From Leucosporidium creatinivorum (Eukaryota; Basidiomycota; Microbotryomycetes; Leucosporidiales; Leucosporidiaceae), in NCBI GenBank assembly GCA_001600635.1, contig BCKL01000042.1, forward strand, positions 62,001 through 126,000: a DNA stretch of 64,000 nucleotides. Reading direction: 5' to 3'. Each line of letters begins with the position of its first letter. Within the stretch, counting starts at the first letter, position 1. The notes beneath the pieces are model-generated. The model saw only the letters and a program-made list of their open reading frames with translations, was not told where the DNA came from and did no database searches. Of this stretch, positions 5,391 through 57,206 are shown in pieces. The translations under genes were made by a program, and so were the position numbers.

Positions 5391-5590
5391 TATGAACTAG
5401 CTTTCAGAATGGGTTTACCGTGCTTTTTGAGTTGACTGTTTACACCTTTTGCAACGCCTTTCGTTCTCAGAGCGGGCGCCGAGAGTTTGAGGGCCGAGAG
5501 GTAGCAGAGCTGACGGTGCGGAGCTTCTATTCCGACGAGACGATAAGTGACGACCTGCTCCCCTCTACTGCTCCTCTCTACTACTCCTGT

Positions 5591-24735: not shown

Positions 24736-24850
24736 TCAAACTAGCATGCAAGGTGATCACTGACTTGCGCTTTGTGTGCGAATGAGGGAGAAAAGAGCAA
24801 GAGCGAGAGCCAGAGCGAGATGAGCGAGAGTGCGCAAGGGCGCCGAGAAG

Positions 24851-25420
24851 CTCAAGGGCCTTCCCATTCGCATCGAGTGCGACGTCGTCAACACCGACCG
24901 TGCTCTCGGCACCACCCTCTCCAACCACGTCTCGAAGCGATACGGCGAGGAGGGTCTGCCGAAGGACACGATCCACATCTACGCCAAGGGCTCCGCTGGC
25001 CAGTCCCTCGGCGCTTTCCTCGCTCCAGGAATCACGATCGAACTCGCAGGAGATGCTAATGACTTCGTCGGGAAAGGTCTGAGCGGAGGGCGGCTGATCG
25101 TCTACCCTCCCGAGAAGTCGACCTTCAAGGCCGAGGAGAACATCGCAAGTCGTCCGCCGCTTTGATTTGCGAAAGGGTGTACTTCGAATACAAGTTCTCT
25201 CAGAAGCTTCAGCTGACTCTGCTCTACACTCCCTTCCTTCAGATCGTCGGCAATGTCTGCCTTTACGGAGCCACGAGCGGTCAGGCCTACTTCCGCGGTA
25301 TCGCCGCCGAGCGCTTCGCTGTGCGTAACTCAGGCGCTATCGCGGTCGTAGAAGGTTGCGGAGATCACGGCTGTGAATATCAGACTAAGGTCGTGTCGTC
25401 GTACCCGGACCCGCTGGCCG
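24851..25420 (+). pseudogene. Duplicated GLT1 fragment
   Basis: A DNA-level copy of GLT1 from about 19894 to 20463 (constant offset 4957), including the intron with its gcaagt donor and ccttcag acceptor. It starts inside an exon (LKGLPIRIECDVV) and ends inside the next exon. From 24,851 to 25,386 I see only a handful of differences, after which similarity decays. It has no promoter or start of its own and covers less than a tenth of the gene, so it cannot make a glutamate synthase. Retention of the intron rules out a processed (RNA-derived) copy. Confidence 0.93.
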
Positions 25421-25841
25421 CCTTTCTGACGCCGAGCGGCGAGATCCTTGGGCAAGAAGCCAGGGCAGGATCAACGCCGAGATCGCGGCTCAGTCCGAGG
25501 GAAGGGCGTATCGCCTCACATGGACCAGTCTAGGGCACAACTGAGGTCTCTGAACCTCGAACGCCCGCCAGAGAGATGATGCACGAGGGTACAAGCAAAG
25601 CCGAAGAGACGAAGCTCTCGCTCTCGGCACTTTTTCCACGGCCGTACCAACGTGAACCAACCTTGCAACAACAACTTCACCGACGAGCTGCACAAGCTTA
25701 CTCATCTTCTCGCGCTCTTTCGGTGTCCTTCGCCTGCAGCCAGTGCCAAGTGATGCTGCGTCATGAGCGCCTGCAAGCCCTTCCCCTCAATTTCGCCAAC
25801 TCTTCGCTGCTTCTCTTCCTGCTCCTGCACACTGCTCGACG
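25421..25841. other. Upstream region of the amidotransferase gene
   Basis: This stretch of about 420 bases lies between the GLT1 fragment and the class I amidotransferase gene. It probably holds that gene's promoter and leader. No ORF here has recognisable features. Confidence 0.4.
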
Positions 25842-27115
25842 ATGACTCCTCCACCACAGCCACGAGAGCCGGACAACAAGCTCACTATCGCCTTCCTGAA
25901 GTGCGATATGCTCCCGAATGAGGTTAAAAAAAAAGGTATCACATACGAGGACGTTATTCACCACCTGTTCGAGCCGATGCTGCCGGAAAGGCTCACTCTC
26001 GAGACTAAAACGTACGATGCTGTAGCACGTCATCTTCCCAGTGAGTTTCTCTCTCGAGTAAGTTCTCAGCTCTCGGCGCCGAGACCCTCTCTTCGCAGCC
26101 GAGAAAGAGCTGGAGGACATCGATGCCATTGTCATCAGTGGCTCCTTTGAAGACGATGCGCACGAGGATGCTACATGGATCTTACGGCTGGCTGGTGAGT
26201 GATTTGCTTCAGCCGAAATTGGCGCCGAGAGCGTGTCGAGGCGAGACGAAGAGCTCATTCTCATCTATACTCCTCCACAGGCCATCTCATCAACGTGAGG
26301 GACAACTACCGTCGGATCAGGATCATCGGCATCTGCTTCGGCCTGTAAGCTCACCGAGAGAGACTAGCCGAAACGACACTCGCCGGAAGCTAATCTCTGC
26401 TTGCCCTCACTCGCAGACAAGTCATTGCACGAGCCTTTGGTCCATCTCAGATTGTCAAGAATGAGAAGGGCTGGGAGGTGGGAAGCACGAAAGTCAACTT
26501 GACGCCTCTCGGTCGAGAGCTGGTCTGGGGCGATGAGGCTGAGTCGAAGGATTACATCGTGAGTGGAGCATTCTCGAGCTCGGTAGTGAGCTCATGTAAT
26601 TCTGCTCCCTCACAGATGACCCAACAGATCCACGCCGACATCGTTTGCAGCGTCCCCGAAGGCTTCGAGCTGCTCGGCTCCTCCGAGCTCACCCCCGTTC
26701 AAGGTCTGGCGGCGATGTACGATGAGGAGGAGCGTCCTGCCTTCTACCACTCGCACGAGAAGAGCCTTCCCGGCGACCCGTGGCGGAGTGTGCACATCAT
26801 TGCGTTTCAGGGTAAGTTCTCGCTTCTCACTCGTCTTCCTTGCTCGGCGCTGACTTGCTCCCCTTCGCTTTAGGCCATCCCGAGTGTTCGTTGCGCTACC
26901 TCGCTGACGGAGATCACAATCTTCTTCCGTGCTGACCTTCTTCAACACCCACAGGGGACGACCGCATCCTGTGCCCTCTCATCGACGGCTGGGAGGCCGA
27001 CGGAGCGTTCGACGCCGAGTTCGCTGCTGGAGCCAGGAACCGGGCAAAGGATCATCACGATGGCAAAGTATTGGGACGAGCATTATTGAAGGTACTAGGA
27101 GTGGGAGTGGAATGA
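25842..27115 (+). CDS. Class I glutamine amidotransferase-like protein
   Basis: A stand-alone class I amidotransferase domain of about 300 residues, like the GMP-synthase-type proteins of fungi (yeast YLR126C group). Key features are DAIVISGSFEDDAHED (N-terminal strand and loop), RIIGICFGLQVIARAFG with the nucleophile Cys, and GHPEW with the catalytic His in the usual C-terminal motif. The last exon ends LGRALLKVLGVGVE with its stop at 27113-27115. GHPEW is only formed if the last donor is GTTCGT, a weaker site than its neighbours. Introns lie near 26041, 26194, 26345, 26558, 26811 and 26892. A run of nine A at 25,925-25,933 encodes part of EVKKKG. The substrate receiving the ammonia is unknown; such proteins may act as glutaminases or peptidases. 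Confidence 0.82.
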
Positions 27116-27193
27116 ACTACTGCGGCTTCCTCACATCTACGTCCGCCTCAGCCGAGTCGAAGCCTCCTCCTCTCCTCGCGCTCCCAGCGAAGC

Positions 27194-27751
27194 CTACGCT
27201 CTTCGATCGACATTGTGGTTGCAATACTGGCGGTCCTTAGTCTCCGTCCTGTGTTGCTGCTCAGACGTCTTGCTGTCGGGAGGCGGACAGATGTTGTCCT
27301 GGATGAGCTTGCGCCGAGCAGGGATGACTTCGTAACCCGTGCTGAAGGCGACGAAGCTAGGATTAGGCTGGATAGCGGGGTGGTTGGTGATGTCAAAGTT
27401 GTGCTGGACACGGTGGGGCTGCTGCTTCCCGCGTGCGACGAGCTGTCTGCCATTCAACGAGTGCTGAGCCGAGTCCTGCGCCGAGGAGGGAGTCTTGGAG
27501 CGTCCAATAAGGCGGCTGAGGGTTTGTCGAGCCTTCGGGGAGGAGATTGAAGAGACTCGGAAGGGTTGAAATGGCTGAGAGGAAGGTGGAGCGAAGTGAA
27601 GGGGCCCGAGAGGGGAGGCAAAAGTTGCGCCGAAGATTGAAGCCGAATCGGCAGCGTGGGGAGAGGCTCCAAGAGGTCGGCGCGCAGAGTAGCTGGAGCT
27701 CTTACTCGAATTGTGCTGCTGAGAGATAGAGGAAGTGGGAGCTGAGCTCAT
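27194..27751 (-). CDS. Small Ser/Pro-rich unknown protein
   Basis: A single-exon frame of 185 codons starting MSSAPTSSISQQ and ending CNHNVDRRA. It is rich in Ser, Pro, Ala and Gln with scattered basic residues, and has no signal peptide, membrane segment or domain I recognise. Its end lies 78 bases from the stop of the convergent amidotransferase gene. Support is codon continuity and position only; it could also be a chance frame in a GC-rich region. Confidence 0.4.
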   Translation of the reverse strand: MSSAPTSSISQQHNSSKSSSYSARRPLGASPHAADSASIFGATFASPLGPLHFAPPSSQPFQPFRVSSISSPKARQTLSRLIGRSKTPSSAQDSAQHSLNGRQLVARGKQQPHRVQHNFDITNHPAIQPNPSFVAFSTGYEVIPARRKLIQDNICPPPDSKTSEQQHRTETKDRQYCNHNVDRRA

Positions 27752-28484
27752 GGTGATTGACGAAGAGCGAAGGGAATAAAGAGCTCGGAGAAAGAGTTTG
27801 AGCTACAGAGAGCTCGCAAGAAGATGCTCCGGGGTCCGCTGAGTAGCTGATTGAGTCTTGAGCGAGTGAGATCAACCGACAAAGGAGGAAAAGGAGCGAT
27901 TCCGAGAAAGGAGCGGCGCCGAAGGGGATGACTCGTCGTCCGAGTCGACGACCGAGGACAAGCGTAGAGATGGGCAGAGGAGCTGGGAGTTATACAGAAG
28001 CTAGGCTAGAGCCTTTTGAGACCTGCTGATGCCAGATGGGCGACGCACAAGGTTAGAAATGCTTGTCAAGCTCACCCTTCGGCGATGCTCCGAGTCCGAG
28101 TCACTCGCTCGGCGCAGGATTTCATGATCCTCTTACCCTATACAGAGCTCTTTGAGGCTCTTTTATACACTACATGAAGCACCTGCGAGACTGAGGACTC
28201 CTCTGTAGCACTAAGCCTCTGTATTCGACCTCTCCCTCTCCTCCCCCTTTCCTCTTTCCTCCCACCTTTGCCGCCGGCCTCGGTCACTGCAGATCGCTTT
28301 TCGGTGATTTTGTCGAGTACCGCGAGGCTGTAGCGCTGTTTCTGCATTTTCCGACAATCAGCGCAGCCGAAGTTCGGGCCTTAGTAATTGGCGCACACCT
28401 TGAGGCCTTCTGTTTCCTCACGCTCACCTCGTTCTGCACCTTGTTCTGCACCTCAACACCAAACCTCAACACCGAACGCAATAA
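27752..28484. other. Upstream region of the peroxiredoxin gene
   Basis: This 733-base region separates the small minus-strand frame from the peroxiredoxin start. The proximal part holds the stress-element pair listed at 28367-28387. Nothing else clear is present. Confidence 0.45.
28367..28387 (+). promoter_or_regulatory. Yap1-type site next to a GAA/TTC palindrome
   Basis: CCGAAGTTCGG (28367-28377) is an 11-bp palindrome with GAA and TTC facing each other. TTAGTAA (28381-28387) is a perfect match to the Yap1 response element. Both lie about 100 bp upstream of the peroxiredoxin start codon. In budding yeast TSA1 is controlled by Yap1 with Skn7, so an oxidative-stress element here fits the gene. 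Function in this organism is inferred. Confidence 0.5.
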
Positions 28485-30143
28485 ATGTCTGCCCGCGTCC
28501 AACGCCCCGCCCCCGACTTCGAGGTGAGTCTCCCCTGAGCAGCAGCTCGACGACAGAGCGCGTCCGGCGGAAGATAACACTCGTTTGGTTCTGTAGGCTA
28601 CCGTCGTCACCGATGGCTTCTTCGAGACCGTCAAGCTCGAGCAATTCAAGGGAAAGTGGCTCGTCCTCTTCTGTAGGTCTTTCATCCCTTCAAAGAGCGG
28701 CGTTTTCAGATTTCCAGTCGCGCCTCCGCGGCAACTCTTCTGTAGCCTTCTATCTGAAGCTGTAGCTGACAACAGAATCTCCCTATACCACAGTCTACCC
28801 CATGGATTGGACTTTCGTGAGCTCCTGCCGCTCCTTCCGACCCTCGCCTGCTGACCCCTTTGCATCCCCTCGCCGAACAGGTCTGCCCCACTGAGATCCT
28901 TGCCTTCAACGCCAAGCTCGAGGAGTTCGCCGCCCTCAACACTGAGGTGCTCGCCGTCTCCTGCGATTCCGAGTACTCTCACCTTGCCTGGGCCAACACT
29001 GCTCGCCAGGACGGAGGACTCGGCCCCGACCTCAAGCTCAAGCTCGTCGCCGACAAGAACCAGAAGATCGCTCGCGATTACGGTGTTCTCCTCGAGGTGT
29101 GTACTGCTCTCTATTGTGCGGCTTTCTGAGACCTCTGAGGCCTGCGTGGTCGCCGCCGAAGCACCGAGCCTTGGGCGCCGAAGGCTGATCTTGTACTTCG
29201 CTTGATCCTACAGGATGAGGGAATCGCTCTTCGTGGTCTCTTCCTCATCGACCCCAAGGGAACTCTCCGTCAGATCACCATCAACGACCTCCCCGTCGGC
29301 CGCTCGGTCGAGGAGACGATTCGCCTCGTCAAGGCCTTCCAATTCGTGAGTTGAGGTCCCGGGATGCTGCAGAATGATTCTGTAGTGTATTTTACGCAAC
29401 TTGAAACAGCCGCTGACCCCGTTATCGCCGCAGACTGACGAGCACGGTGAAGTGTGTCCCGCGAACTGGGATAGCGAGCGCAACAACGCCACGATCAAGT
29501 GAGTTGAGCCGTTTGCCTCGCATACACATCCCTGCATCTCTTCTGAGCTACCCCGATTTCGCCCTGACTCGGCTGGAGTCGAGTTGGGCGGCTCTCTCTC
29601 CATCTCGGCGTTCGGCGCTGACCCTTCTCTCCTTCTGCTTCCCTCCCTCCTCCCCTTCCCTTCTTACCTCTACTACAGGACCGACCCCAAGGCCAAGCTC
29701 GAGTACTTCAAGGAGCAGAAGTGAGTGCAACTCGCACAGCAAGCGGCCTCGTCGCCTTCGTCCAGCTCGCAGTGTCTAGAGCAGCTGGGTCGGGGTAGGC
29801 GAGGGGAGTAGAGGAGAGGTTACTAGCAGTGATATACATCGAGATTTCTTAGACTAGTCTACGCCTCTCGAGGTCAAGTCGGAGCAGTGCTGCCACGGAG
29901 GAGCGAGCGAGCAGTCTGCTAAAGGCGACCGAGCAGCACTTCGAGTCGCTCATAGTAGGCTACAGTGACAGCAGGAGCTCGCCCATGTCGCTCCAGCATC
30001 TCGGGCATCGGGCACCAGTAGCTGACCGCTCTCTTCCCCTCCTCTACAGCCCCGAAACCGCCTCGACCGCTCGCAAAGATCCTCCTTCGCCTCCCAACGG
30101 TGCTGTCGACGGCAACGCCAGCAAGAAGGCTCGTACAGCTTAG
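28485..30143 (+). CDS. TSA1: Typical 2-Cys peroxiredoxin
   Basis: Reduces hydrogen peroxide and peroxynitrite using thioredoxin; abundant in the cytosol. Eight exons encode about 225 residues. The peroxidatic Cys is in TFVCPTEI and the resolving Cys in GEVCPANW. The resolving-Cys region resembles animal and plant enzymes (VCPANW) more than yeast Tsa1 (VLPCNW). Both features linked to sensitivity to over-oxidation are present: GGLG (in RQDGGLGPD) and a YF motif (in LEYFKEQN). The tail [31 protein letters not shown] extends past the usual end and resembles a basic nuclear-type signal (KKAR), so some nuclear location is possible. An intron splits TF from VCPTE right at the active site. A fragment of this gene lies at 56941-57206. 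Confidence 0.95.
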
Positions 30144-30746
30144 GATGCTCGTCGGAGAGCGACAGCTTGGCGCAAAAGACGCAATGAGTCGCTCGAAAGG
30201 CGGGGGAAGAAGCTGGAGGGGAAAGGGAGGCTTCGGCGATGAACCGCGGCGACGGGAGGAAGGAAAGAAGGACTGGTCCGGGCTGGCAGGACATTAATAG
30301 GGTGGATGCTGCATTCGAGCAGACCCAACAAGATATATGAGCGTAGGTGAGGGACTGGGGACTCCACACACGAGAGAGCAGCTCGGCCGAGCTTCGCAGC
30401 TGATCTCGCGAGGATTTGCGAAGATTGGAAGGTGTCAAGTACAGAGAGCCCTTGCCAGATTACTTGCAAGACTGGCTGAATCGGCTCTGGCGAGCTGAGC
30501 GAGCCCCATCCATGCCAACAGCGAGCCTCCTTCACGCTGGCGCCCCGGCTTCGTCTTTGCCCCTAACCTCTTCGCTCGCTTCTGTCGACCGCCGCTGGGC
30601 TCGTAGCTGGACAGTACAGCATATCGGGAGACTGCTCAACACCACGTTACGACTCACCTACATCCTCCAGCACCCTCACCTGCTCCCTCCGCTTGACCCC
30701 GCACCTTTCGGATCGCTTCCTCGTGCAGCTGGCGAGAGAAGTCGAA
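30144..30746. other. Intergenic region between peroxiredoxin and F-box gene 2
   Basis: This 603-base gap holds the peroxiredoxin 3' UTR and the promoter of the F-box-like gene. Frames here show no protein features. I see no repeat or RNA gene. Confidence 0.4.
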
Positions 30747-35404: not shown

Positions 35405-36411
35405 ATGGCCGCCACCACGATCCCCCGCATCAAGAAGAGGACCAAGCCCTTTAAGTGAGCCTACAGAGGCCCTCTCTCAGCCGAGCATAGAGCTGACCAA
35501 GTGCTGCCCTTTAACCCCTCCCTACCGACCTCGCTACACTTCGCACCACTTCCTAATCGACTCTACTACACTTTCCGACTACCCTCTCGTCAATTGCACC
35601 TCTCTACGACCCTCCGCTGCTCTCTCAATCGCCCCTCCCGAACCTACGCTCCTCCTGCACCCCTCACGACTCTCTAATCCACCTTATCTCACTCGCTATT
35701 CCACTACATCAGGCGCCACCAGTCGGACCGCTACCATGGAGTCAAGGAGGCGTGGCGCAAGCCTAAGGGTGCGTCGTCGTAATGCTCGAGCTTCGGAGAA
35801 CGGCCGGCTGACCTCGCTTTGGTGCTGCTTCACAGGAATTGACAACAGGGTGCGTGGGGAGATGTCGTAAAGCTATCGCTAGTCCGGACAGCTCGCTGAC
35901 CCTCCGCTGGATCTGCAGGTTCGTCGTCGATTCAAGGGACAGCTCCCCATGCCCAAGATCGGTTACGGTTCCAACGCCAAGACCCGTCACGTTCTCCCCA
36001 ACGGCTACAAGCGCTTCTTGGTCAACAACGCCCGCGACGTTGAGCTCCTCCTGATGCACAACGGCTCGTACGCCGCCGAGATCGCCCACGGTGTCTCGTC
36101 GAGGAAGCGCATCGAGATTGTCGAGAAGGCCCGCGTTGTACGTTTGGGGTGTGGAGCGAGGTGTAGTGGAGAGCCGAGGAGCGCAAGGTCCCATGAAGAG
36201 AGAGCGTAGGGCGGAGGGGACACGTCGCTGCCAGCCTCGGCGGAACCGAGGCCACCCTGCCGCTCTCGCCTCTCTCGACGACCTTCAACCCTCGGCCTCC
36301 TTGCCCTCAACGCTAAGCTCACCAACGGGTAGCTGACAAACCTCCTCGTACCCACAGCTTAACGTCAAGCTCACCAACGGCAACGCTCGCGTTCGCACCG
36401 AGGAGGCTTAA
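35405..36411 (+). CDS. RPL32: 60S ribosomal protein eL32
   Basis: Structural protein of the large ribosomal subunit. Five exons give about 130 residues: [36 protein letters not shown], a 14-nt exon, then [17 protein letters not shown] to EIVEKARV, and [17 protein letters not shown]. The length matches the family. The first intron is unusually long for this locus (about 258 nt) and pyrimidine-rich; I see no snoRNA box pair in it. The last intron is about 220 nt. The 3' half of this gene and its downstream region are duplicated at 39187 onward. It is convergent with a TEF1 fragment. Confidence 0.96.
35836..35849 (+). other. 14-nt micro-exon in RPL32
   Basis: GAATTGACAACAGG lies between an acceptor ending cttcacag and a donor gtgcgt and supplies GIDNR in RKPKG-IDNR-VRRRF, a conserved eL32 stretch. 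Skipping it would shift the frame. Confidence 0.8.
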
Positions 36412-37295
36412 TCGCTTCATTCGGAGTATGCTTCTCGCTGGAGGGATCTGTAGAATCTGTGTGTGCAAGGGAGGGAGTGAGACAGAAGAAAGGGCTTGCT
36501 CGGCTATCGCTTCGGTCGGGTTGGAGGGGACGAATAGGCGATGGCGACTAGGAAGGTGGGGAGGGAGGGGCACCTCTTCCCCTCACCTTCGGACGGGGGT
36601 TCATTTCCTTGCGCTGCAACGCTGCAAGGGCCCTCAAAATGATGTAGATATCGAAGGAGCTCACTGCGAAGCAAAGAATGAAACAGGAACGCGAGCAAGC
36701 AAGCCCTCGGCGATGCCCTGCTCTCCCGCTCTCTCCGCCGAGCAGCTGTCACAACCGCCTTCCATCGACCTGAACCCGGCTTGCAAGGCGTCTAGAGGTT
36801 TTTGTCGAGGTGTAGAACACTACTGCGCTTCGCAACGCAGGCGTCAAGAGCCTTGCTGGCGATTTGGCCCTCCCCCTCGAGCACTCGGCCGTTTCTCGGC
36901 GCAGAGCGCTGAGGCTCGAAGGGCGGGCGAGCTGGACGCACTCTCCTCTCGTTTGCTCGGCTCGCACTGGGGGCTATACACGCTCTCATCAAGCTGCACT
37001 GCACCAAACCATCGACTTTATTGGCTGCTCCTGAGCACGAAGCTGCTCCCTCTGCGCCGAGCTCGGCCTCGCTCAAAGTCGAGCTCGCTCTCTCGAGTGT
37101 TTGCGTCTCTCTGCTCGGACCGGTGCGCGAAAATGTATGAAGGCAAAACAAAACCTTCGCTTCAAGCACAACACAACTAACCCAGGGGCCTACACAAAAC
37201 GAGTCGGGATCCGCTGGGGTTGGGCTATACGAAACGGAGGGTTGAAGTGGCGGTATCGAAGACAACGAAGGGAACGAGGAGAAGCAAGGGCGAGT
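36412..37295. other. Intergenic part of duplication copy A
   Basis: This lies between the eL32 stop and the TEF1 fragment. It contains the shared block tgcaacgctgcaagggccct at about 36,620 and a longer shared stretch from about 37,020 to the fragment. No gene is supported; short frames here are low-complexity. Confidence 0.45.
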
Positions 37296-37744
37296 TTACT
37301 TCTTCTTGAGGGCCTTGTCGGCGGCCTGTGAGAGGAGAGAAGGGAGGAAGTCAGCTTCGGCTCGGCGAGGGTTGAGAGCAGCTCAAAGTCGAATTTACCT
37401 TAGTGACCTTGCCACCCTTGCCGTCGGTCTTCTCGACCGACTTGAAGACACCGACAGCGACGGTTTGACGCATGTCACGGACGGCGAAACGTCCAAGAGG
37501 AGGGTACTCGGCGAACGACTCAACGCACTGTGAGCGGGGAGGGAGAGGCGAGGTCAGCTTCGGTCGGCGTCGTCGAGCTCGGGATCGCTTGAGTACTCAC
37601 CATGGGCTTGGAGGGAATCATCTTGACGATGGCGGCGTCTCCAGACTTGACGAACTTGGGCTCGTTCTCGATCGACTTTCCGGAACGGCGGTCAATCTTC
37701 TCGAGGAGAGTGTCGAACTTGCAGGCAATGTGGGCGGTGTGGCA
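37296..37744 (-). pseudogene. TEF1 3' fragment
   Basis: Contains only the last three coding exons of elongation factor 1-alpha, from [16 protein letters not shown] through [16 protein letters not shown] to AADKALKKK and the stop, with their two introns and the preceding acceptor. It matches the full gene (40918 onward) at constant offset 3622. One coding change is seen: VGVFKSVEK here against VGVVKSVEK in the full gene. The homology ends inside the next intron (about 37760), so the GTP-binding domain is absent. It has no start or promoter. Confidence 0.94.
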
Positions 37745-38047
37745 CTGTGGGTGAGAGGGGAGAGAGCGCCACTTCAGATGCCAGCTTGCTGCGAGACGAC
37801 GAAGCAGGAAGGAGACGAACGCCGAGAGAGCTGAGCCTGAGCTCAAGGCTCCGCTGAGGAGCTCAAAATGTTGGATTGAACGCTGTAGGCGAGTCTTGAG
37901 AGTGTCCTACTCCCTTCTGCGCCTCGAGCTGCACTCTCAAGGATAGAGCGAGCGATCAAAGTCGAGCGAGCGCGAGCCTTCCTCTCTCTCCCTCCTGCCA
38001 CATTTTGCTCGTTTCTCGCTTCTTCGCCTCGGCTCTCAAATCGTACG

Positions 38048-38942
38048 ATGGAAGCAGGAAGCTCGTCCAAGACTTCTGCTAGCTCTGCTGTACCCTCGGC
38101 CACCGCTCCCGCCGACGAGGACGATGATGAGAAGTGGCCTCCTCTGGATCTCTCTTACATTATCCCTCCGCCGCCTCGCGTGCCCTCCTACTTCCTCAAG
38201 TGAGCTACAGACATGCTTCCAAATCTACTAGCGACTTTGACACGTCTTCATCTTGTACAGAGTGCCTCGACTCACTCCTCACGACCCGACGGCCATCGTT
38301 GACGATACCAATTACGATCCTCTCAACCCTCCTTCTCCGCCTCTTCTATCGGACTACAAGGGACAGCCCGACGATGCGGTTGGATATGGTCCTCCTCCTG
38401 GTTTTCACTTCGAAGGCAACGTTCTCGTCCGCGAAGAGCCAGTGGAGGGATCGGCGCTCGGTGGGTCTGGCTCGGTCGGCGCTCAGGAAGGATACGAGGA
38501 GTGGGGCGTGCAGTCGAGTGGACAGGAAAGGCGCCTGGAGCACGATGCTGCTGCTACCGGAGGGGTAGGAGGTGCTGCGACTGGAGAGGCGTCGCTCGCT
38601 GAGGCTGTGACCAGCGCCGAAGGTCAAGGTGAGCATTTCTACCCGACTATCGCAGACTCTTGCGACGATTGCTGGCTCAAGCAAGAAGACTGACTTCCTT
38701 TCGACTCGCTAAACAACCCGACAGCCCGCACGACGGAATCTCTCTCTCCCATCTCGGCGCCCTCCGAGTCCAACCCCTTCGCTTCTGTCATCTCTCCCTT
38801 CCAACCTCCCACCACCCCGCCCGTCGATCCTCCCGCCAAGCTACACAACCCGCAACTCGCTCCCTCCGCCTCCAACAGACCGTCTGCGACGTCGAAGGAT
38901 CCTTCGGCTCTCGACGCTCAGCAGGTCGGCAGCGCCGAGTAA
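38048..38942 (+). CDS. Unknown acidic, proline-rich protein at a duplication junction
   Basis: Three exons encode about 245 residues: MEAGSSSKTSASSAV, an acidic patch ADEDDDEKWPPLDL, YIIPPPPRVPSYFLK, then after an intron VPRLTPHDPTAIVDDTNYD and a Gly/Glu/Ala-rich middle, and after a second intron a Ser/Pro-rich tail ending DAQQVGSAE. Both introns have good signals and keep frame, which supports a real gene. I recognise no domain. It sits between the TEF1 fragment and the eL32 fragment, that is, exactly where the two copies of the segmental duplication should abut. Confidence 0.65.
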
Positions 38943-39186
38943 GCCCAAAGTCGAGCTGGAGGGGAAGGAGACTCGATGAGTGTGATAGTGTGCTTTAACC
39001 AGCAGTGTGGAGTGTGGGGGTGCTTGTGAAGCTTGCTGTTGTGTGCAGAGGGGAGACTCGAGGGCGGCTACGGCTCGGCGAAGGAGCCAGTCGTCAATTG
39101 CTTTCGATTTGCAAAAAGAGCCATCAGCTTGAACATTGAAAAGAAAGCGAAGCTAGCCTTCTTGTAATCCTCTTCGAGCTACAGCA

Positions 39187-39566
39187 AACAACGCCCGCGA
39201 CGTTGAGCTCCTCCTGATGCACAACGGCTCGTACGCCGCCGAGATCGCCCACGGTGTCTCGTCGAGGAAGCGCATCGAGATTGTCGAGAAGGCCCGCGTT
39301 GTACGTTTGGGGTGTGGAGCAAAGGGGCTGGGGAGTGTACCGAAGTGGAGAGGGCGTGAAGTCGAAGGAGAGGAGAGACCGCTGGCTGTCGTTCTCGGCG
39401 CAGCGGAGGCTCCCACCTTTCGGCCTTCGCTTCTCGACCTTCGGACCTCTCTGGCTCCCAGGCTCAACGTGAAGTTGACGAACCGATAGCTGACAATCCT
39501 TTATCTTCACAGCTTAACGTCAAGCTCACCAACGGCAACGCTCGTGTCCGCACCGAGGAGGCTTAA
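39187..39566 (+). pseudogene. RPL32 3' fragment
   Basis: Last two eL32 exons with the intron between them: [15 protein letters not shown] to EIVEKARV, and [17 protein letters not shown] with stop at 39564-39566. The first exon part is identical to the full gene over more than 110 bases. The last exon has only synonymous differences (for example gttcgc against gtccgc), while most of the intron is diverged. The first three exons are missing and no start is present. Confidence 0.94.
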
Positions 39567-40917
39567 GCCATCTCTCGGGATTTGTAGTTTCTGTGTGTGC
39601 AAGGGAGGGAGTGAGACAGACACGAAGCGTTCTGTTGGTCTTCGCTTGGGTTGGGCTGGAGGGAACGACAGGCGAGGGCAACTAGGAAGGAGGAAGGAGG
39701 AAGGGGTCGGAGACCCCCCCTCCCTTCCCCCTTCGGACGGGGGTTCATCCTTTGCGCTGCAACGCTGCAAGGGCCCTCAAAATGATGTAGATACCGGTGA
39801 AGCGTTTTGTGAGGTGTGAAGCCACCGGCAAAGAGCGTAGTGATGCCGCTCCGCCCCGCCCTCAGCGTTCCCTGCTCGACTCTTTTCGCTGGCTCGCCAG
39901 GCTGCGGCATCTCTGGCGACTGCGCTGCGACCTCACGTTCGTGCATGATTCTCGACCCGACTCTCGTCTGCCTGTTCGAGCTCTAAGGCGCTGTGACATG
40001 CGAAGAGTGCCTCGCCGGCCGCTTCGCCCAAGGCATGGCAGCGCTCACCCTCCTGACCCGAACCATCGCTCGACGCCGCTTGCCACTCTACAGACGCTCA
40101 TCACGATTTCATGCTGCATCCTATAGCTACTGGTTGCTATTCTGCGTCCATGGCCGCTCTCGAGCGACCTAGTTTGCCCGGCTACTGCTCCTTCGAGTGT
40201 TCGGCAGAGAGCTGAGAGGCGCCGCGATACGCTGCTGCAGCTCGAGGGGGTTTAGACGTGGAGGTGAATCAGTTGTATGAACGTGATTTTCCTGGGACGC
40301 GAGCTACGAGGACGTCTTTTGAGCTGTGAAGCTTTCGCTTAGTGGCTCACTCCCCTGCGCCGAGCAGTCGCTTCGGCGCGGTGAAATGGCCACCAGCTCG
40401 CCCGTGAAGCTCAGAATCGACTTTTGTGGGCCTGAAAATAGTTCCTAGAGCAGCAGAGGCTCACTTGAGGGCCTTTGTCACGACTTCGCCCTTCGCTTGA
40501 CCACTTGGGCGGTTTCTCGGCGCTGAGCGCTGAGGCTTGAACAGGCGAGCTTGTCGTTGCTCTGAACACGCTCGCGGCTGGTTGGAGAGGTACGTATGCT
40601 CGTATCAAGCTACACTACAGCCGCCACCGACTGTGATCGCTGCTGTCGTGCACTCTGCTGCTCCTTCTGCGCCGAGCTGCTGCAACCTCGCTCTCTCGAC
40701 TGTTTGCGTCTCTTTGCTTGCTTTGTGTCTCTCTGCTCGGACCGGTGCGCGAAAATGTATGAAGGCAAAACAAAACCTTCGCTTCAAGCACAACACAACT
40801 AACCCAGGGGCCTACACAAAACGAGTCGGGATCCGCTGGGGTTGGGCTATACGAAACGGAGGGTTGAAGTGGCGGTATCGAAGACAACGAAGGGAACGAG
40901 GAGAAGCAAGGGCGAGT
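39567..40917. other. Intergenic part of duplication copy B
   Basis: Spacer between the eL32 fragment and the TEF1 stop. Shared blocks with copy A lie at about 39,590-39,800 and from about 40,650 on. The middle (about 39,830-40,640) has only patchy similarity and contains no supported gene. Confidence 0.45.
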
Positions 40918-42946
<2,029 letters not shown>

Positions 42947-43200
42947 CTGAGTAGTAGTGAAGTAGCGAGTAGAGAAGAAGAGAGACAGAAGCGAAAGAAA
43001 GCAATCAGCGAAAAATTCTGGACGGTGGCGGGCTGGTTGAGGCCGCCTCGAAGCCGACGACGATGGCGGAGTAGGCCAGGCGGTACGAGAGGCTACTGGA
43101 GCAAGTCCTAGTAGTACCTAGTCGCCCTCATCGACGTCCAAAAGAGCGCCGAGAGGTGGCGCCTGAGTAAAGATGCTCGTGGCAGAGCTTTACTCGACGT
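42947..43200 (-). promoter_or_regulatory. TEF1: TEF1 proximal upstream region
   Basis: Leader and promoter-proximal region of TEF1, read on the minus strand. No TATA box or named site is obvious. Repeated ctacag signals upstream (about 43,270-43,285 on the plus strand as ctgtag) suggest a leader intron. Confidence 0.4.
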
Positions 43201-43522
43201 CCAAGCGCCGTTGGAAGACGAGATTGAAGGGGAGTAGCCGGTGATGCAGGTGGAAGGCCGGTAGAGCGTCCCTGTAGTGCTGTAGAGCGACGTACTTTGA
43301 TAGAAGTTGTTGACTGAGTGGAGTGGAAAAGCAAGAGAGGTTTCGCTGGGGCGAGGCCAGTTTCTTCCTTCAACGCGCGGCTAAGCTCGGACTACCTCAA
43401 GCTCTGCGATTCCTCCCTAGCGTCGACTCATTTGCACCAAGTCATGGCCGACTGCCTCGCCTTCGAACTCGGCTCTACTACGGTGCAGCTCGCCACTTGC
43501 CCCGAGCAAGTCGCTCGGTCTA
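43201..43522. repeat. TEF1 upstream-region repeat, copy 1
   Basis: About 320 bases repeated in direct orientation at 45678-45999 (offset 2477) with roughly 20 differences. It lies 255-576 bases upstream of the TEF1 start codon, so it probably belongs to the promoter or leader. Edges are sharp on both sides. No open frame is shared cleanly by both copies in a way that suggests protein. Confidence 0.9.
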
Positions 43523-44598
43523 CTACAAGGTTACATCTTTTCACCTCGGTTCCGATGCCATGCTACCCAGCTTTCTATGCATCCTCTCAGGCGAAGAAAG
43601 ACGGCTTCATGCGAGCAGCTCCTTCCGCCGAAGCTGGGGTTCAAGGGCGACGGAGATCACCGGCGATCGTGTAGCGCACCGTAAAGATGCTCGTGCTACT
43701 CGTGATGACCTAAAACCACTTCAGAAGCACCATCGTGCCAGCAGTCGTTGGCAGTGGCTCCGTCAACCTCATGTCCGGCAAGGGCCCTTTCGCCGAGAGG
43801 CAGATTAATCGCTGGTGGAAGTCTGTGGGAGATCAGATCGGCGCCAGTCATCACCATTAGACTCGCATAATATGCTTGAGCACCTTTTTCGCAAGTCTGG
43901 CACATCTCAGCTCTTCAAATTTGGGAAACAGCTGCTTCGGCGATGGCAAAAGGCTGATCTGTGACGGCAGCTCAATGTCAGCTCGCGTCTTCTCGCGCAC
44001 GGCCGGGGTTGCAGAGCTGCTTGCTCAAGCTCGGAACTCTCTGGAAGCTCCCTCGTCGCTCGAGGTCAACCACCTCACAATCCTCGGGCCTTGCGTCCGA
44101 CGGCCTCTGCCTCGCCGTTTCTCTTCTTCGGCCGACCCTTTGAGCTCAGCTGCAATTGCTGCATGAGAGCAGGAAAAGATTTTCGACGTAGCTTACACGC
44201 AGCCGCCGCATCGCCTTACGGCACCCTAATCAAGCTCAGCGACTTGAGTTGAAGCAGGTGCTCCTAGCTTCGCCGAACCGGGCAGACTTGCGGCGCTGAA
44301 GCTACGATCTGTGCTTTGCGTCCTATTGCACGTGCACTCCAAGGACTATGAGTAGACCGCTACCTTTCGAAAGGCTACAAGCTGGCCGGCTACAAGGAGA
44401 GGCTTCGCAGTTTGCTGTCACGGCGACCGACTTCAGCTCGCTTGCCACTGTTGGTGGAGAGCTACATCTCCCAGGTTCTCGGCGCCCAGATATCTACCCT
44501 TATACGGAACCTGCCTTCTGTGTGCCTCGTTAGGCATGTCCAGCGTCCCATGAGCCTGGATACTGGCGGTGAACCTCCGCCGAGCTCGGCTCTGCCGC
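43523..44598. other. Gene-poor stretch
   Basis: No supported gene, repeat or RNA. Short frames lack any recognisable protein feature, and I see no matching introns. Confidence 0.4.
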
Positions 44599-45203
44599 CT
44601 GGACTCCACAGCGTACAAGTACAAGGTCGGACTGTACTGTAATTTACTGCGGAAATTACAGCCCCTATCTTGGACCTGACAGTACAATCACAGCCTCTCG
44701 GATCCGTCAGGCGCGTAACCGAGTGTCGAAAGTAGCCAGCTCGGCGCTCGGCGAGTGGTCTACGAAGCTCGACTTGGTCTTCAAACAGCTCGGGAGGTCT
44801 CAATCGATGGCCAACTAGTCGAGTGGTTAACTTCAGTCTATCTCTGCTCATTCAGAGCTCTCGAGGCGGGTTCAATTCGCTTCGAGGTTCACCCTGTGTC
44901 CTTCGGCGTCAGCTTTTCTCGCCAGAAATCTTCTATCAACATNTACATCACGCCGAATCTTATACTTTTGCTACGCTTAGCGTATTACACAACTCTTCAC
45001 AGCCTCCATGTAGTGCAATACGTGAACAAAATGCGAGCTCGGCGTTGACCTCGCGACCTTTCCTCCCTTCTTCAGCCTCTACCGGCTGATACAGATACAC
45101 GATGTACCTGTACTGAGCTGTATCACGTAAAATTGCGGGGTAAACCGGTACGATACAAGTACAGAGGCCAAATCCTGCAGGTTTTGTACAGTGTGGAGTC
45201 CAG
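44599..45203. mobile_element. MITE-like element with terminal inverted repeats
   Basis: CTGGACTCCACA at 44599-44610 is matched exactly by TGTGGAGTCCAG at 45192-45203. The inversion continues imperfectly inward (GTACAA on both sides, then related blocks at about 44,612-44,662 and 45,085-45,185). TGCCGC lies just before the left end and again at 45207-45212, a possible 6-bp target duplication if the right end is a few bases further out. A nested 9-bp hairpin (CTGTAATTT with AAATTACAG) lies at 44637-44661. It is about 605 bp with no transposase frame, consistent with a short non-autonomous DNA transposon. It contains an ambiguous base at 44943. Confidence 0.6.
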
Positions 45204-45677
45204 CCAGTGCCGCTCTCTCAACGCGAGGCCAATGGCTCGCATGCAGATACCGCTTGCTCTCGGAACTTCTGAGGGGTCGCACTCTTCCTATCGGTAGCGA
45301 GTAGCGCCGTCTCGTTGGGGGTAGCTCCCTCCCTCGGCGCATCAGCCCCTCGGCGAAGGAAACCGGTAAGTAGGCGGGTCACCTTGCAGCTGTCCGAGGT
45401 CGAGACGTGAGTGAAGCAGTGTTGACATGTCAAAAAGCTGGACTACATGCCATACAAGCTGACAGCGCCGATACTGAACTTCTGCGGCTCGAGCGACTGC
45501 ACACCTCAGCTCTCGCAGGCTCTCAGTTGGCGTCGCTCACTTGGTGCAGCCGCAGCAACAAGCTGGGAGCGGCCAGAGTTCCTCACAGATATGCATGTAC
45601 TGTCAGAGACCATCTTCCGACACATCCTCGCTTCTGGACGTCTGCACTCAAAATCTCGGCGCTGAGCTCGGTGACTT
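45204..45677. other. Gene-poor stretch
   Basis: About 470 bases between the inverted-repeat element and the second TEF1 upstream copy. I see no gene, RNA or repeat here. Confidence 0.4.
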
Positions 45678-45999
45678 TCAAGCGCCGTTGGAAGACGAGA
45701 TTGGAGGGGAGTAGCCGGTGATGCAGGTGGAAGGCCGATAGAGAGTCCCTGTAGTGCTGTAGAGCGACGTACCTTGATCCAAGTTGTTGACTGAGTGGAG
45801 TGGGAAAAGCAAGAAAGGTTTCGCTGGGGCGAGGCCAGTTTCTTCCTTCAACGCGCGGCTAAGCTCGGACTACCTCAAGCTCTGCGATTCCTCCCTAGCG
45901 TCGACTCATTTGCACCAAGTCATGGCCGACTCCCTCGCCTTCGAACCCGGCTCTACTACGGTGCAGCTCGCTGCTTGCGCGGAGCAAGCCGCTCGGTCG
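45678..45999. repeat. TEF1 upstream-region repeat, copy 2 (orphan)
   Basis: Second copy of 43201-43522 in the same orientation. Here no TEF1 coding sequence follows: on the minus strand it faces into the gene-poor stretch and the inverted-repeat element. It ends about 180 bases before the YTM1 stop codon. It may still have promoter activity. Confidence 0.9.
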
Positions 46000-46177
46000 A
46001 CAGGTCGGCCCCGGAGCTCAAGTAGCCCACGCCAAGCTGTTGCAGCCCTGACGTGTAATAGAATGGACCCTCGAGTATCCTCGACATGCTGCGAGCTCTC
46101 ATCCCTCGCCCTCAGCGCAATGAACATGGATCCGACCCGAATCCTTTTACAACCGCCCTCGCCTCCCGTCTACTCTA

Positions 46178-52417: not shown

Positions 52418-53341
52418 CTATATCATTAGAGCGGTACTGTATCAACACTTCGCAACTTCCATGAGCTAGTGGAAGATTGCGAAGGAGCGGGGCTGCTCGG
52501 CGCCGAGGTTGCTCAATTGGCTCTCCCGGCACGCTCGCGAGGTGCTGGCGCGCCGTAATGATGTATTGTAGCACAGCCAATGCGCTCTATAAGCCTCTCG
52601 TATTAAGTTTGCAGTGGTGTGCAGCAGCAGTGGCGCGTGAAGGGTTCGGAGCAACTTCGGTCGAGGGCTGAGAGTCTGGACCAGCGCTGTAGAGCTGCAG
52701 AGGAGTCTGAGAGCTCAAAATCTGACCGCCGAAGCCCCCAGCTCGAGCTGTAGGCTGACAGAACAAGGTGCATCGGCCTCGCCCTTCACAATCTTCGCGC
52801 TCGCGCACGCCGCCTCGCTTACAACCACATTCTCGACTTCGCCCGCCTCGCTCAGCGTGGGCTACAGGCCGAACTAGAGAGCTACACGCGCTCAACTCGA
52901 CCCCCCTCGCCTTCTTTCGCCACTCTCATCGAGGCTAGCCAGCACAACAGCGCGACTCGCTCCTCGGATCCTCGCGCTCTCGGTCTCTGTAGGCCAGCAG
53001 CCGTAGTCTCGAGCTCAGGGTACTCCAGGTGAGTCGTCTCATAGTCTGCACAAGTTGGTACAGAAGTAGGCACGAGCTGTAAAGGAGCAGCGAGCGCAGA
53101 GTGGAGGCGACGGGACTGCCTTTCGCTCTTAAAGGGCTCGTGGGAGGTGCTCTGCTGCAAAAGAAACAAGCTGTAGCTTAGCAGATAGCTAGGAGCACGT
53201 CGCTGCTGCTCTGCAGTTGTACAAGAGCAGGTCGTGTGCCGCTGCAGGCCTCTCAGCCGGTGGCGATCAGAACGCGAGCTGACCCTTTCGTTTCTGCACC
53301 TAAGCAGCTCGCCCGCGCGCTCTTCGTCTTCACGACTGTGA
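52418..53341. other. Intergenic region upstream of the SUMO ligase gene
   Basis: These 924 bases contain no supported gene. Many ctgtag/ctacag hexamers occur, so leader introns of the downstream gene are possible. No repeat of other window sequence is seen. Confidence 0.4.
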
Positions 53342-56300
53342 ATGCAGCCGAACCTTTACTGGACTCAGACCTCCCAATACCCTCAAGAACAGCTTCCAAA
53401 CCCGTCGGCCTCGAACCCCTACCCTTCTGCCGCCGCCGCTCAGTACCAGGCTGCACCTCACTACCCGGATCCAGCCTACAGCTCCTTCATCGCTCAACAA
53501 CAAGCTCTTGCTAGTCAGTGGCCGCCCTACGTCCAGCAGCTTCAGCAACCTCAGCACTTCGCTCCGGCCGCCTACCAACAGCCGCCTCTCCTCGGCGCAC
53601 CTCAGAACTCGACAGGCTACACTCCGCCAGTCTTCTTCTACTCACCAGAAGCTCCTCCGAACCCTTTACCAACCCCCGGCCCTTCGACACTCCCCCTTCA
53701 GCCCGCTCCGGCGCTCGTAGCTTCGATCAACTCGCAAGGCCAACTCCTCCATCCTCTGCCTTCTCGTCCTCTGAGTCCCATCAGACTCAGTCCCATCTAC
53801 TGCCCGGCGTCCATCGTCGCGCCTGCACCTCTTCGCGTCGCTTCGGCCGACCCAACCCACCTCGCGACCCCGACTTGGTCGCCGACTCTCAGCAACTCGC
53901 CCATCGTCGACCAGCACTCAACCAACCCTGCTCCTCCTCCTCTGATCTACTCGTACAGCACCGAGTCGACTACACCTCGTCCCGTTTACCCCCTCCCTCC
54001 TCGGCCTCGCTCTCCTACCCCTCCTCCTTTCACCGAGACTTTCTCCGAGCAACTCGACAAACTCAACATGTCGGCCGATACGAACGTGAGTATTGTTGAG
54101 AGCGATTCAGAAGCTGTGTGTTGACCTCATACTTCTCTCTCGGCCTCTTCGCAGACCATGATCGCCGAGCTTCAGGGCATGAAGGTCGACCAGCTCAAGC
54201 TCACCATTCGGCGCTTCAACGAGACGTGCATGATGCACCTTCGCATCAGCGGCGTCAAGTCTGATCTCGTGAGTAACTTGCAGCTGACATCTTCGTTCAG
54301 TGCGGTCGCTGATCGGCGCCCCCTCGCTCAGTACGGCCGATGCCGAACTGCTGTCTACGAGCTCGCTGCTCAGCCCGACAAGACTCGCTTCAACCAAGCC
54401 AAGCGTATCATTACCGAAGCCAGCAACTAGTGAGCCTCGTCACCGTTGTCTCCGTCGTCTGCAGAGTAGCTAACTCTCACCCTCCCACTCGCAGCCACGG
54501 AGGCTACTCGCCGTCCTCGTCCTCCGCCTCCTACGGCTACCAGTATCAAGCCCCTGCTCAACCCGCTCGTCCCGCTGCCCCTGCCTACGGAGGAGCTGCC
54601 AGCTACACAGGCTACGGAGGCGCCGCTCTCCCCGCCAAGCCAGCTCTCCCTGCGCCTCGCTTCGGCGCCGGCGCCGCCAACGCCTACGCCTCAGGCTCTG
54701 GAGCCAACGGCGACTACGGCTATGGAGCGGGAACGAACGGAACGCCGGCGGTCGCTCCTGTGGTGCCGGCGAGGAGCGAGGAGGTCCCCTTGCTCTTCCG
54801 ACCGAATCCCTTCTACAAGGTCGAGAGGAGCTTGTGCGGAGTGACGACGCTTCCCAAGGCGGGCCAGGGGGATAGGAAAAGCGTGGTGTGCAACTTCGCC
54901 CTCACCGAGCCGCAGAGGACGGCGTTGGCCAAGTCCAAGTGAGTTCAGCCCTCGTCGTCGACTTTGAGGATCTCTTCATCGCCGAGCATGGTCGCTGACC
55001 TCCTTTTCTCCTCATCAGAGCTTCGGCCGCCAATCCTCAATTCCAAGTCCGCCTATACTGCACCAACGAGGACTACTTCAACCCTCACCGAGCTTCGAGT
55101 AGCCAACCGCCCGCTCCCATCGACTTTCCCGCCACCTGCGAGATCAAGCTCAATTACATCAACGTCCCGGCCAACACCAAGGGTATCAAGAAGCAAGTCG
55201 GTACCGCCTCGCCCGTCGATCTCGCCAAGGGAGGCAAGCTCGACATCACCGCCGGCGCCATCAACCGTCTCGAGGTCATCTACGTCAACACCGAGAAGGC
55301 GCAGACGAGGGTAAGCATCTCGTTCGAGTTCGCTGCCCCTGCGAATGACCGAACTAACGCCGTTCTTTTGCCTTTGCGCCCCCCTCTTGTCGTCGGACCC
55401 GCCTGTCTACCAGCGATACTTCATGGTCGTCTACCTCGTCGAGGTGACGACGATCAAGCAGCTCGTGGACCGCGTTAGGACGGGAAAGCAAAAGACCTCG
55501 GAGGAAGTCATCCAGAGCAGTGAGTCTTAGCTAGCCGGCTCGGTTGAAGGAACGCCGCTGACCTGCTCTCGCTCGCTGCCACAGTCGTCAGGATGAACTC
55601 CGACCCCGACATGGAGGCTTCGGCGCTCACCGTATCACTAAAGGATCCTGTGCGTTGCTCGCCGAATCGATGCCAGCTCATACGCTATCGCTGACCCGTC
55701 GCCTTTCACTTCGCAGCTCACCCTCGCTCGCATCAAGACGCCCATTCGCTCCAACGTCTGCACTCACGTCTCTTGCTTCGACGCCGAGGTCTGGTTCATG
55801 ATCAACGAGCAGACGCCGACGTGGAACTGCCCCATCTGCAGCAAGGTCCTCCGAGTCGACGACCTCGTGCACGACAAGTGAGCTCAGCCTTCGAAACGTC
55901 TCATCGCTCGTCCGCTGACCTCTCATCTCTTCCAGCTTCTTCGCCGACGTGCTCAAGACGATCGGACCCGCCGAAGTCGACGCCATTAGCGTCGAGCCCG
56001 ACGGCACCTGGCGCTCGGACAACGACAAGTTTGGCACCGCCACGCCCAAGTCGGTCGTCCCTTCCCGCGCTGGCTCCGTCAAGCCCGACATCAGCGCCCT
56101 CAACAGCGCCGACGGCTCGGCCGCCCCCGAAGGCAAGGGCAAAGGCAAGGCGATCGTCACCGAAGCGTTGACGTTGGACTCGGACGACGACGATGATGAT
56201 ATGCCGTTGGCTAAGAGGCCGAGGCTGAATGGAGCGGGAGGATACCGCATGAGCTTGGGAGGGACGCTTTCGATCAATAGCTCGCCCGCTCCCAACGGCG

Positions 56301-56743
56301 CAGGAGGAGCGCCACCACCACCAAGGAGGATGGAGACGATCGACCTCACCCTCAGCGACAGCGACGATGATGCTCCCCCTCCCCCTCCTCCCGCTGCTGC
56401 CGCTCGACCACCACCCGCCGCTCACTCGGCCTACGTCCCCCCACCACCTGTCCCTCGACCCGCCTCCTCCGCTAGCTCTTCGAACGGAGCTGCAGGAGCA
56501 GGGTACGGCGCCTCGGATTTCCAGGCGCAAGAGACGTTGAGGAAGCAGTTGGCCGAGCAGGCGCAGAGGAGGCAGTTGGACGATATTCGGAGGAGGAGAG
56601 AGGAGCAGGCGAGGAATGGAGGGAGTGGGGCGGGGAGGCCGTCCTGGGAAGGTGGGTCGTCGTCTGATGAGTGGAGGAAGGAGCAGCGTGAGAAGAGAGT
56701 AGGGGAGCTGACTTCGGACATGTGGGATTCGCTTCGCAGGTGA
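53342..56743 (+). CDS. SIZ1: PIAS/Siz-type SUMO E3 ligase
   Basis: Promotes transfer of SUMO from Ubc9 to targets in the nucleus. Nine exons give about 940 residues. A 250-residue Pro/Gln/Ser-rich N-terminus precedes a SAP-like helix pair (MKVDQLKLTIRRF, LRISGVKSDL), unusually far into the protein. A Gly/Ala/Tyr-rich linker leads to the PINIT region (FYKVERSLCGVTTLP, FPATCEIKLNYINVP). The SP-RING follows, IRSNVCTHVSCFDAEVWF then WNCPICSK, with its zinc ligands intact. SUMO-interacting motifs are likely at LTLDSDDDDDD and ETIDLTLSDSDDD, a hydrophobic run followed by acidic residues. A coiled, Gln/Arg-rich C-terminal segment ends LTSDMWDSLRR. It is the only candidate for this activity in the window. 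Confidence 0.92.
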
Positions 56744-56940
56744 TGGATGGTGATGCCGAGGCGATGAGGGAATAGTCGGTTTGCTTGCTTTTCGAGCGTA
56801 GGGGAGCTATAATAACGATCGAGGTGTGGGATGATTCGTAACGCTTGATGTACCTTTCTACGCGTCAGAAAGCGGCCATCGTGAGTCGGCGAAGGCGAGT
56901 TCGTCCTTCCGGCGGGCTGAGAGTCACCTCTGAGCGTTCG

Positions 56941-57206
56941 ACTTGCACTCACTTCTGCTCCTTGAAGTACTCGAGCTTGGCCTTGGGGTCAGTCCTGTGA
57001 GTGAGGAGAGGAGAGAAAAGAAGAGGGAGGGAAGCAGAAGGGAGAGAAGGCTCAGCGCCGAACGCCGAGATGAAGAGAGAGCCGCCCAACTGGACTCCAG
57101 CCGAGTCATGGTGCACTCGGGGTAGCTCAAAAGAGATGCAGGGATGTGTATAGCTCTGCTAGCGTAGCGAGGCAAACGGCTCAACTCACTTGATCGTGGC
57201 GTTGTT
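56941..57206 (-). pseudogene. Peroxiredoxin gene fragment
   Basis: On the minus strand this matches the TSA1 gene from about 29480 to 29733: the end of one exon (NNATIK), its whole following intron, the complete small exon [13 protein letters not shown] and the start of the next intron. The intron carries a short insertion and other changes, while the exon that encodes the YF motif is intact with its splice signals. All catalytic exons are absent. Retained introns show a DNA-level copy. It lies about 27 kb from its source and in opposite orientation. Confidence 0.9.

What the first reader, a model, noticed from the sequence alone, without database searches (positions are those of the whole stretch)
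24851..57206. Recurrent local duplication of fragments of conserved genes, introns included
Five separate truncated copies occur in 64 kb: GLT1 (24851-25420), TEF1 3' end (37296-37744), eL32 3' end (39187-39566), the TEF1 upstream region (45678-45999) and peroxiredoxin (56941-57206). All but the TEF1 upstream copy keep introns, so they are DNA-level events, not retrocopies. Sources are conserved and mostly very highly expressed genes, and copies lie 2-27 kb away. The pattern suggests a replication- or transcription-linked patch-duplication process, or an assembly that laid divergent haplotypes side by side.
Basis: partly seen in the sequence, partly recalled or inferred. Interest (0 to 1): 0.72.

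Follow-up and report, generated by a model that had tools for sequence, protein, structure and literature searches.

The report
Local partial copies of housekeeping genes
A fungus-like genome carries short, intron-keeping pieces of ordinary genes (translation genes among them) a few thousand bases from the intact genes; they look like real local DNA duplications whose middles are kept alike by gene conversion, a known kind of event that is dense here.

Summary
The five copies are real and far above chance. They amount to four events: the eL32 and TEF1 3' fragments are the two ends of one duplicated block, copy - 1.4-kb spacer with a gene - copy. Genome searches list the copies only on the same contig, within 28 kb, and no second full-length source gene (GLT1's 3' half was not queried). 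This speaks against haplotypes laid side by side. Introns are kept, so they are not retrocopies. Identity is mosaic: identical cores, some spanning introns, with diverged edges, as ectopic gene conversion leaves. More examples exist: two oxoprolinase/hydantoinase fragments on C1, a uL3 3' fragment on C20 identical over 708 bp, probably an eS12 fragment on C26. A link to high expression is not shown: 2 of 5 uL3/L7Ae-family genes but 0 of 14 enolase, GAPDH and chaperonin-family loci had a visible local fragment. Best reading: ordinary DNA-level partial duplication by break or replication repair, then gene conversion. No reads, relatives or expression data were available.

The parts
19894..20464 (+). 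GLT1 (glutamate synthase) source segment: parts of two exons and the intron between them
   Evidence: self-BLAST; Pfam GATase_2 on window:15998-16900 and GXGXG on window:20106-21272; the gene continues on both sides
24851..25420 (+). GLT1 fragment copy, intron kept (donor reads GC), about 1.8 kb past the GLT1 stop codon
   Evidence: Pfam GXGXG on window:25063-25533; two places in the genome in all
29482..29737 (+). peroxiredoxin (AhpC/TSA family) source segment: end of one exon, intron, next exon and its donor
   Evidence: Pfam AhpC-TSA on window:28881-29098
56936..57206 (-). peroxiredoxin fragment copy, inverted, 27.5 kb away, intron kept
36024..37761 (.). left copy of the duplicated block: 3' end of the intact eL32 gene (36024-36653) through a truncated TEF1 3' end (36847-37761)
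   Evidence: Pfam Ribosomal_L32e on window:35919-36137
37762..39186 (+). spacer between the block copies with a predicted gene of unknown function (about 38049-38942, by eye)
   Evidence: no Pfam hit for window:38241-38693; other places listed only for pieces of 33-58 bp
39187..41383 (.). right copy of the block: truncated eL32 3' end (39187-39796) through the 3' end of the intact TEF1 gene (40468-41383)
   Evidence: Pfam GTP_EFTU on window:41740-42447:-
43196..43523 (-). TEF1 upstream region (source), apparently with 5'UTR and splice donor
   Evidence: splice donor read by eye
44599..45204 (.). short repeated element with inverted ends (MITE-like) in the spacer between the TEF1-upstream copies
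   Evidence: 12 other places in the genome, 73-97%; inverted ends read by eye
45673..46001 (-). TEF1 upstream copy

Best explanation
These are real partial gene duplications made at DNA level by break or replication repair that copied DNA from nearby. Two shapes occur. In the first (eL32-TEF1 3' block, TEF1 upstream) a short stretch is duplicated in direct order with other DNA between the copies. In the second (GLT1, PRX; outside the window the two C1 fragments, uL3 and probably eS12) a piece of an otherwise intact gene is copied, direct or inverted, to a site a few kb (PRX 27 kb) away. After formation, ectopic gene conversion between fragment and source keeps cores nearly identical, in several pairs introns included, while edges decay. 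Shown: the copies, their local placement, intron retention, mosaic identity. Inferred: the repair route, the conversion and its direction, the order of events.
For: The window's gene copies are listed only on the same contig. Introns kept. The longest identical run exceeds permutation in 7 of 7 pairs tested (P from 5e-5, the floor, to 0.022). In the TEF1 core 0 of 347 noncoding and 1 of 302 exon sites differ, while the adjoining intergenic stretch is about 65% alike. In eL32 2 of 168 exon but 125 of 429 other sites differ; by reasoning, a neutral unconverted fragment should lose exon identity about half as fast as intron identity. The uL3 copy is identical from C20:114683 to 115390 across four introns (introns by eye), has one exon difference, and differs in a cluster after the stop codon. 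Each block copy is continuous with a different intact neighbour (eL32 left, TEF1 right), as tandem duplication with DNA at the junction predicts.
Against: No relative could be consulted, so which copy is derived is inferred. Exon conservation in eL32 and PRX could come from selection on the fragments or late truncation of older full copies, and exon/intron contrast by itself lengthens identical runs there. The HyuB pair runs the other way: 18 of 160 exon sites differ, 0 of 38 intron sites. The two C1 pairs are only about 91% alike. The OPLAH and HyuB fragments were not searched genome-wide. The assembly had trouble with near-identical copies: 20 of 20 undetermined bases on C42 lie in the repeated stretches I listed, so some identity could be over-called.
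Confidence: 0.62

Rival explanations
1. Remnants of older complete tandem duplications: whole genes were duplicated, then one copy was lost piecemeal, leaving the fragment seen today.
For: Several direct copies lie beside their gene; exons of the eL32 and PRX copies are much better kept than introns, as in former functional paralogues; the HyuB fragment has several amino-acid changes in a clear reading frame.
Against: PRX, uL3 and eS12 copies are inverted; TEF1 and uL3 cores are identical through introns; for the window pairs nothing aligned beyond the fragment ends in the flanks compared.
Confidence: 0.2
2. A transcription- or replication-linked process acting preferentially on highly expressed genes, for example breaks at termination sites repaired from the neighbouring template.
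For: Sources include TEF1 (twice), eL32, PRX, uL3 and probably eS12; three copies are 3'-terminal: eL32, TEF1, uL3. In human cells R-loops lie at promoters and terminators of highly expressed genes, and breaks gather at terminators when Top1 is depleted (PMC7414224, abstract and section list seen).
Against: GLT1 and the two C1 genes are not translation genes; 0 of 14 enolase, GAPDH and Cpn60/TCP1-family loci have a visible local fragment; 2 of 5 uL3/L7Ae-family genes against 0 of 14 gives one-sided P of about 0.058 by hand; GLT1, PRX, HyuB, OPLAH and TEF1-upstream copies are internal or 5' pieces.
Confidence: 0.2
3. Assembly artefact: divergent haplotypes or mis-joined contigs laid side by side.
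For: All 20 undetermined bases of C42 lie in listed repeated stretches, 18 of them at mirrored positions of two copies; enolase occurs twice with the same exon scores and spacing on two contigs, C47 and C48.
Against: No second full-length copy of the queried window genes is listed; identity within one pair ranges from about 55% to 100%; the spacer gene has no other listed place; cases on C1, C20 and C26 have the same character; some copies are inverted and sit in unrelated sequence.
Confidence: 0.1
4. Capture by a transposable element (Pack-MULE or Helitron type) or retrocopying.
For: A MITE-like element lies in one spacer and a member of a repeat family ends 122 bp before the GLT1 copy.
Against: Introns kept; no dispersed copies of the window's gene fragments listed; no element ends seen at fragment edges by eye, though no dedicated search was made.
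Confidence: 0.04

Closest known systems
DNA-mediated partial gene duplicates, as reviewed by Katju (PMC3449122; passages seen)
   Same: partial copy of one source gene, DNA-mediated, subject to gene conversion
   Different: its table gives 7% partial among 47 young S. cerevisiae pairs (but 63% among 30 spontaneous duplications in C. elegans lines); here four events lie in one 64-kb window and several cores are identical through introns
Insertions with tandem duplication by patch-mediated double-strand break repair in rice (Vaughn and Bennetzen 2014; known here only from passages of a review, PMC7407515; the paper itself is not held)
   Same: tandem duplication together with insertion; short local or ectopic donors
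   Different: the review describes rice insertions of 10-1000 bp; here spacers are 1.4-2.2 kb and the larger block is 1.7-2.2 kb
Truncated pseudogenes of hemiascomycete yeasts (PMC2876123; passages seen)
   Same: DNA-level truncated gene copies in fungal genomes
   Different: there the few pseudogenes of intron-containing genes do not span the intron site, with one exception that lacks the intron; here the GLT1, eL32, TEF1 3', PRX and uL3 copies hold introns

Membership tests
DNA-mediated partial gene duplicate | copy covers only part of one source gene | tested here: met
   the eL32-TEF1 block covers parts of two genes and the stretch between
DNA-mediated partial gene duplicate | introns retained | tested here: met
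   GLT1, eL32, TEF1 3', PRX and uL3; exon limits and by eye
DNA-mediated partial gene duplicate | derived copy identified by comparison with an outgroup | not testable with these tools
   no relative of this genome is held
ectopic gene conversion between paralogues | runs of identity longer than chance, crossing functional boundaries | tested here: met
   (7 of 7 pairs, P 0.022 or below); noncoding identity in TEF1, GLT1 and uL3 cores; the test does not by itself exclude selection or recent copying
patch-mediated tandem duplication with insertion | duplicated stretch flanking inserted DNA, each copy continuous with one native flank | tested here: inconclusive
   shape fits the eL32-TEF1 block and TEF1 upstream; no empty site available
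processed retrocopy | introns absent | tested here: not met
allelic haplotype duplicated by the assembly | full-length second copies with uniform divergence | tested here: not met
   read depth not available

The most novel reading that the evidence does not exclude
In this fungus many translation genes have a truncated copy close by, often the 3' end, that transcription-linked recombination both creates and keeps identical, so that the fragments act as standing local repair templates for the genes most exposed to transcription-replication conflict.
Probability: 0.12. Interest if true: 0.78.

Novelty: new member of a known kind. Interest (0 to 1): 0.42.

Why it matters
Partial duplicates are reported as scarce in S. 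cerevisiae (PMC3449122, passages). A yeast-sized genome where several persist near their sources, some with intron-identical cores, would be a natural system for measuring ectopic gene conversion and for testing whether transcription drives local duplication. It also warns that PCR or short-read work on TEF1, a common fungal barcode (recalled), may mix gene and fragment in such a species.

Tried and rejected
Two-haplotype assembly: rejected as the main reading because no second full-length copies are listed. Retrocopies: rejected, introns kept. Pair 3-1035 / 23696-24728 as a further gene fragment: rejected, it belongs to a repeat family also on C22, and no reading frame stood out by eye. C5 repeats as gene fragments: not counted; the two members read look F-box-like by eye. 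Similarity 12184-12366 / 13558-13740: looks like two related neighbouring genes, not counted. The Fisher test used 2 of 4 against 0 of 13; recounting searches gives 2 of 5 against 0 of 14, one-sided P about 0.058 by hand, which replaces it. The Poisson figure (P 0.007 for 4 or more events in 64 kb at the outside rate of 2 per 174.5 kb) is not a fair test, because the window was chosen for having them. Notebook entries hold slips that this report replaces: says 741+ bp and three introns for uL3 (one search shows 708 bp and four introns), '6 of 7 pairs' (one search shows 7 of 7) and 'RP 2 of 4'. Seven paper searches showed no title or abstract start reporting this pattern; the library lacks most subscription journals, and only four papers were opened.

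Full report
Setting. The window is G000:C42:62001-126000 in a 27.7-Mb, 63-contig genome; window GC is 59%, and the genes are eukaryotic with introns. C42 is 148,478 bp long and begins with AACCCT repeats, so it starts at or near a telomere. The tools hold no relatives of this genome.

Observation. Self-BLAST recovers all five copies. With one scoring scheme the weakest scores 321 bits and the best self-hit in 20 shuffles 35.6 bits. Source identities rest on Pfam: GATase_2 and GXGXG (GLT1), Ribosomal_L32e, GTP_EFTU (TEF1), AhpC-TSA (peroxiredoxin). The GLT1, eL32, TEF1 3' and PRX copies keep introns. The TEF1 upstream copy appears to hold a 5'UTR splice donor, read by eye only.

One event fewer. 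The eL32 and TEF1 3' fragments are the ends of one duplicated block. The left copy (36024-37761) runs out of the intact eL32 gene and ends in a truncated TEF1; the right copy (39187-41383) starts in a truncated eL32 and runs into the intact TEF1; the middle of the block aligns poorly. Between the copies lie 1.4 kb with a predicted gene without a Pfam hit. TEF1 upstream has a similar shape: 43196-43523, a 2.15-kb spacer with a MITE-like element found at 12 other places, then 45673-46001. GLT1 and PRX differ: the parent gene continues on both sides and the piece was copied elsewhere, PRX inverted.

Local only. Own-genome DNA searches with the GLT1 copy, 3-1035, 37042-37765, 43520-45673, 24700-44590, 45210-63000 and 1040-19890 list the gene fragments only at their partners on C42. 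Other matches: the repeat beside the GLT1 copy (C42, C22), the MITE-like element, 75-77% pieces of the TEF1 coding region on C23, pieces of 33-58 bp on C51, C28 and C4, a 46-bp match on C39, and a 68% match at C42:131823-131992 belonging to the duplication at the window's right edge. Limits: in the three long queries one candidate each went unscored and the query's own place is not listed, so copies inside a query's own stretch come from self-BLAST; only the best candidates are scored; 20465-24699 (GLT1's 3' half) and 63001-64000 were not queried as such. The result still speaks against a two-haplotype assembly.

Mosaic identity. In 7 of 7 pairs the longest identical run exceeds permutation expectation (P 0.0008 GLT1, 5e-5 eL32, 5e-5 TEF1 3', 0.0097 TEF1 upstream, 0.0017 PRX, 0.0002 HyuB, 0.022 OPLAH; an eighth row, the TEF1 core alone, has 1 mismatch and P 0.97, so it tests nothing). 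The runs take in intron sequence in GLT1, TEF1 and HyuB. In eL32 exons differ at 2 of 168 sites and other sites at 125 of 429; in PRX 1 of 59 and 32 of 197; in HyuB the contrast is reversed, 18 of 160 and 0 of 38. Conversion from source to fragment explains identical cores with decayed edges; selection on fragments or late truncation could add to the eL32 and PRX pattern.

Elsewhere. Outside the window I self-compared 84.5 kb of C42, 50 kb of C1 and 40 kb of C5 (results). C1 has two gene fragments, both about 91%: one matching the N-terminal part of an oxoprolinase-like gene (L022 2455-2925 against 5992-6463) and one matching part of a hydantoinase-B gene (L022 9639-9836 against 8255-8452). 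C5 has a cluster of related sequences. The other 84.5 kb of C42 has repeats, and an inverted 1.7-kb duplication at 89.7% crosses the window's right edge; I did not classify these further. Whole-genome Pfam searches: uL3 has an inverted 3' copy on C20, identical from 114683 to 115390 through four introns (introns by eye), with one exon difference at 115391 and a cluster of differences after the stop codon (816 bp aligned at 98.65%). One of four L7Ae-family genes, eS12 by its sequence (recalled), has a second inverted match 6 kb away on C26; in the 311 bp read of each, the stretch shared up to the end of the piece differs by one 1-bp indel and the upstream part is unrelated. Which of the two is the gene is inferred from a splice-site-like join. 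Enolase (two loci, same spacing, on C47 and C48), GAPDH (two loci) and Cpn60/TCP1 (ten loci, one of them a single hit in a 1537-aa frame) show no local fragment. Profile searches would miss noncoding, short or diverged fragments.

Assembly. All 20 undetermined bases on C42 fall in repeated stretches that I listed, 12.5% of the contig; the list includes the MITE-like element, which accounts for one of the 20. Eighteen of them are at mirrored positions of two copies. The assembler saw both copies but could not always tell them apart. It seems to mark such sites rather than erase them, so identical cores are probably real; reads are needed.

Literature. Partial DNA-mediated duplicates and their conversion are known (PMC3449122, passages). 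Repair insertions with tandem duplication are known in rice (through PMC7407515, passages). Truncated yeast pseudogenes are known, with intron-spanning ones exceptional (PMC2876123, passages). In human cells R-loops lie at promoters and terminators of highly expressed genes, and breaks gather at terminators on Top1 depletion (PMC7414224, abstract). Seven searches listed no paper whose title or abstract start reports this pattern.

Verdict. Real, recurrent and local, but of a known kind. The link to high expression is open and cheap to test with the whole genome and RNA-seq.

Noticed in passing
window 44599-45204: MITE-like element with inverted ends; 12 other places in the genome, 73-97% identical.
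   Followed up: partly
window 3-1035 and 23696-24728; C42 36198-40416 and 58796-63035; C22 394487-395694 and 471358-472516: Repeat family of unknown nature with an inverted pair on C42 (3.6 kb shared, 90.6%) and matches in opposite orientation on C22.
   Followed up: partly
C42 38470-38637, 60575-60742, 125983-126077, 129609-129703; window 20189 and 44943: All 20 undetermined bases of the contig lie in listed repeated stretches, 18 at mirrored positions of two copies: a trace of unresolved near-identical copies in the assembly.
   Followed up: yes
window 20189 and the matching base of 24851-25420: The undetermined base of GLT1 falls on the second base of a splice donor; the fragment reads GC there.
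   Followed up: partly
window 37963-38024: Just upstream of the spacer gene, pieces of 33-58 bp recur on C51, C28 and C4 at 83-97%; nature unknown.
   Followed up: no
   Followed up: no
window 62999-64000 and onward; partner C42:128980-130680: Inverted 1.7-kb duplication at 89.7% holding a reading frame without a Pfam hit.
   Followed up: no
L022 2015-2455: The oxoprolinase-like fragment on C1 abuts a reading frame that looks like the end of a membrane transporter (by eye), as if that gene had been cut.
   Followed up: no
G000:C5:609362-638881: Cluster of related sequences in both orientations, about 68-80% over the longer matches; F-box-like by eye in the part translated.
   Followed up: no
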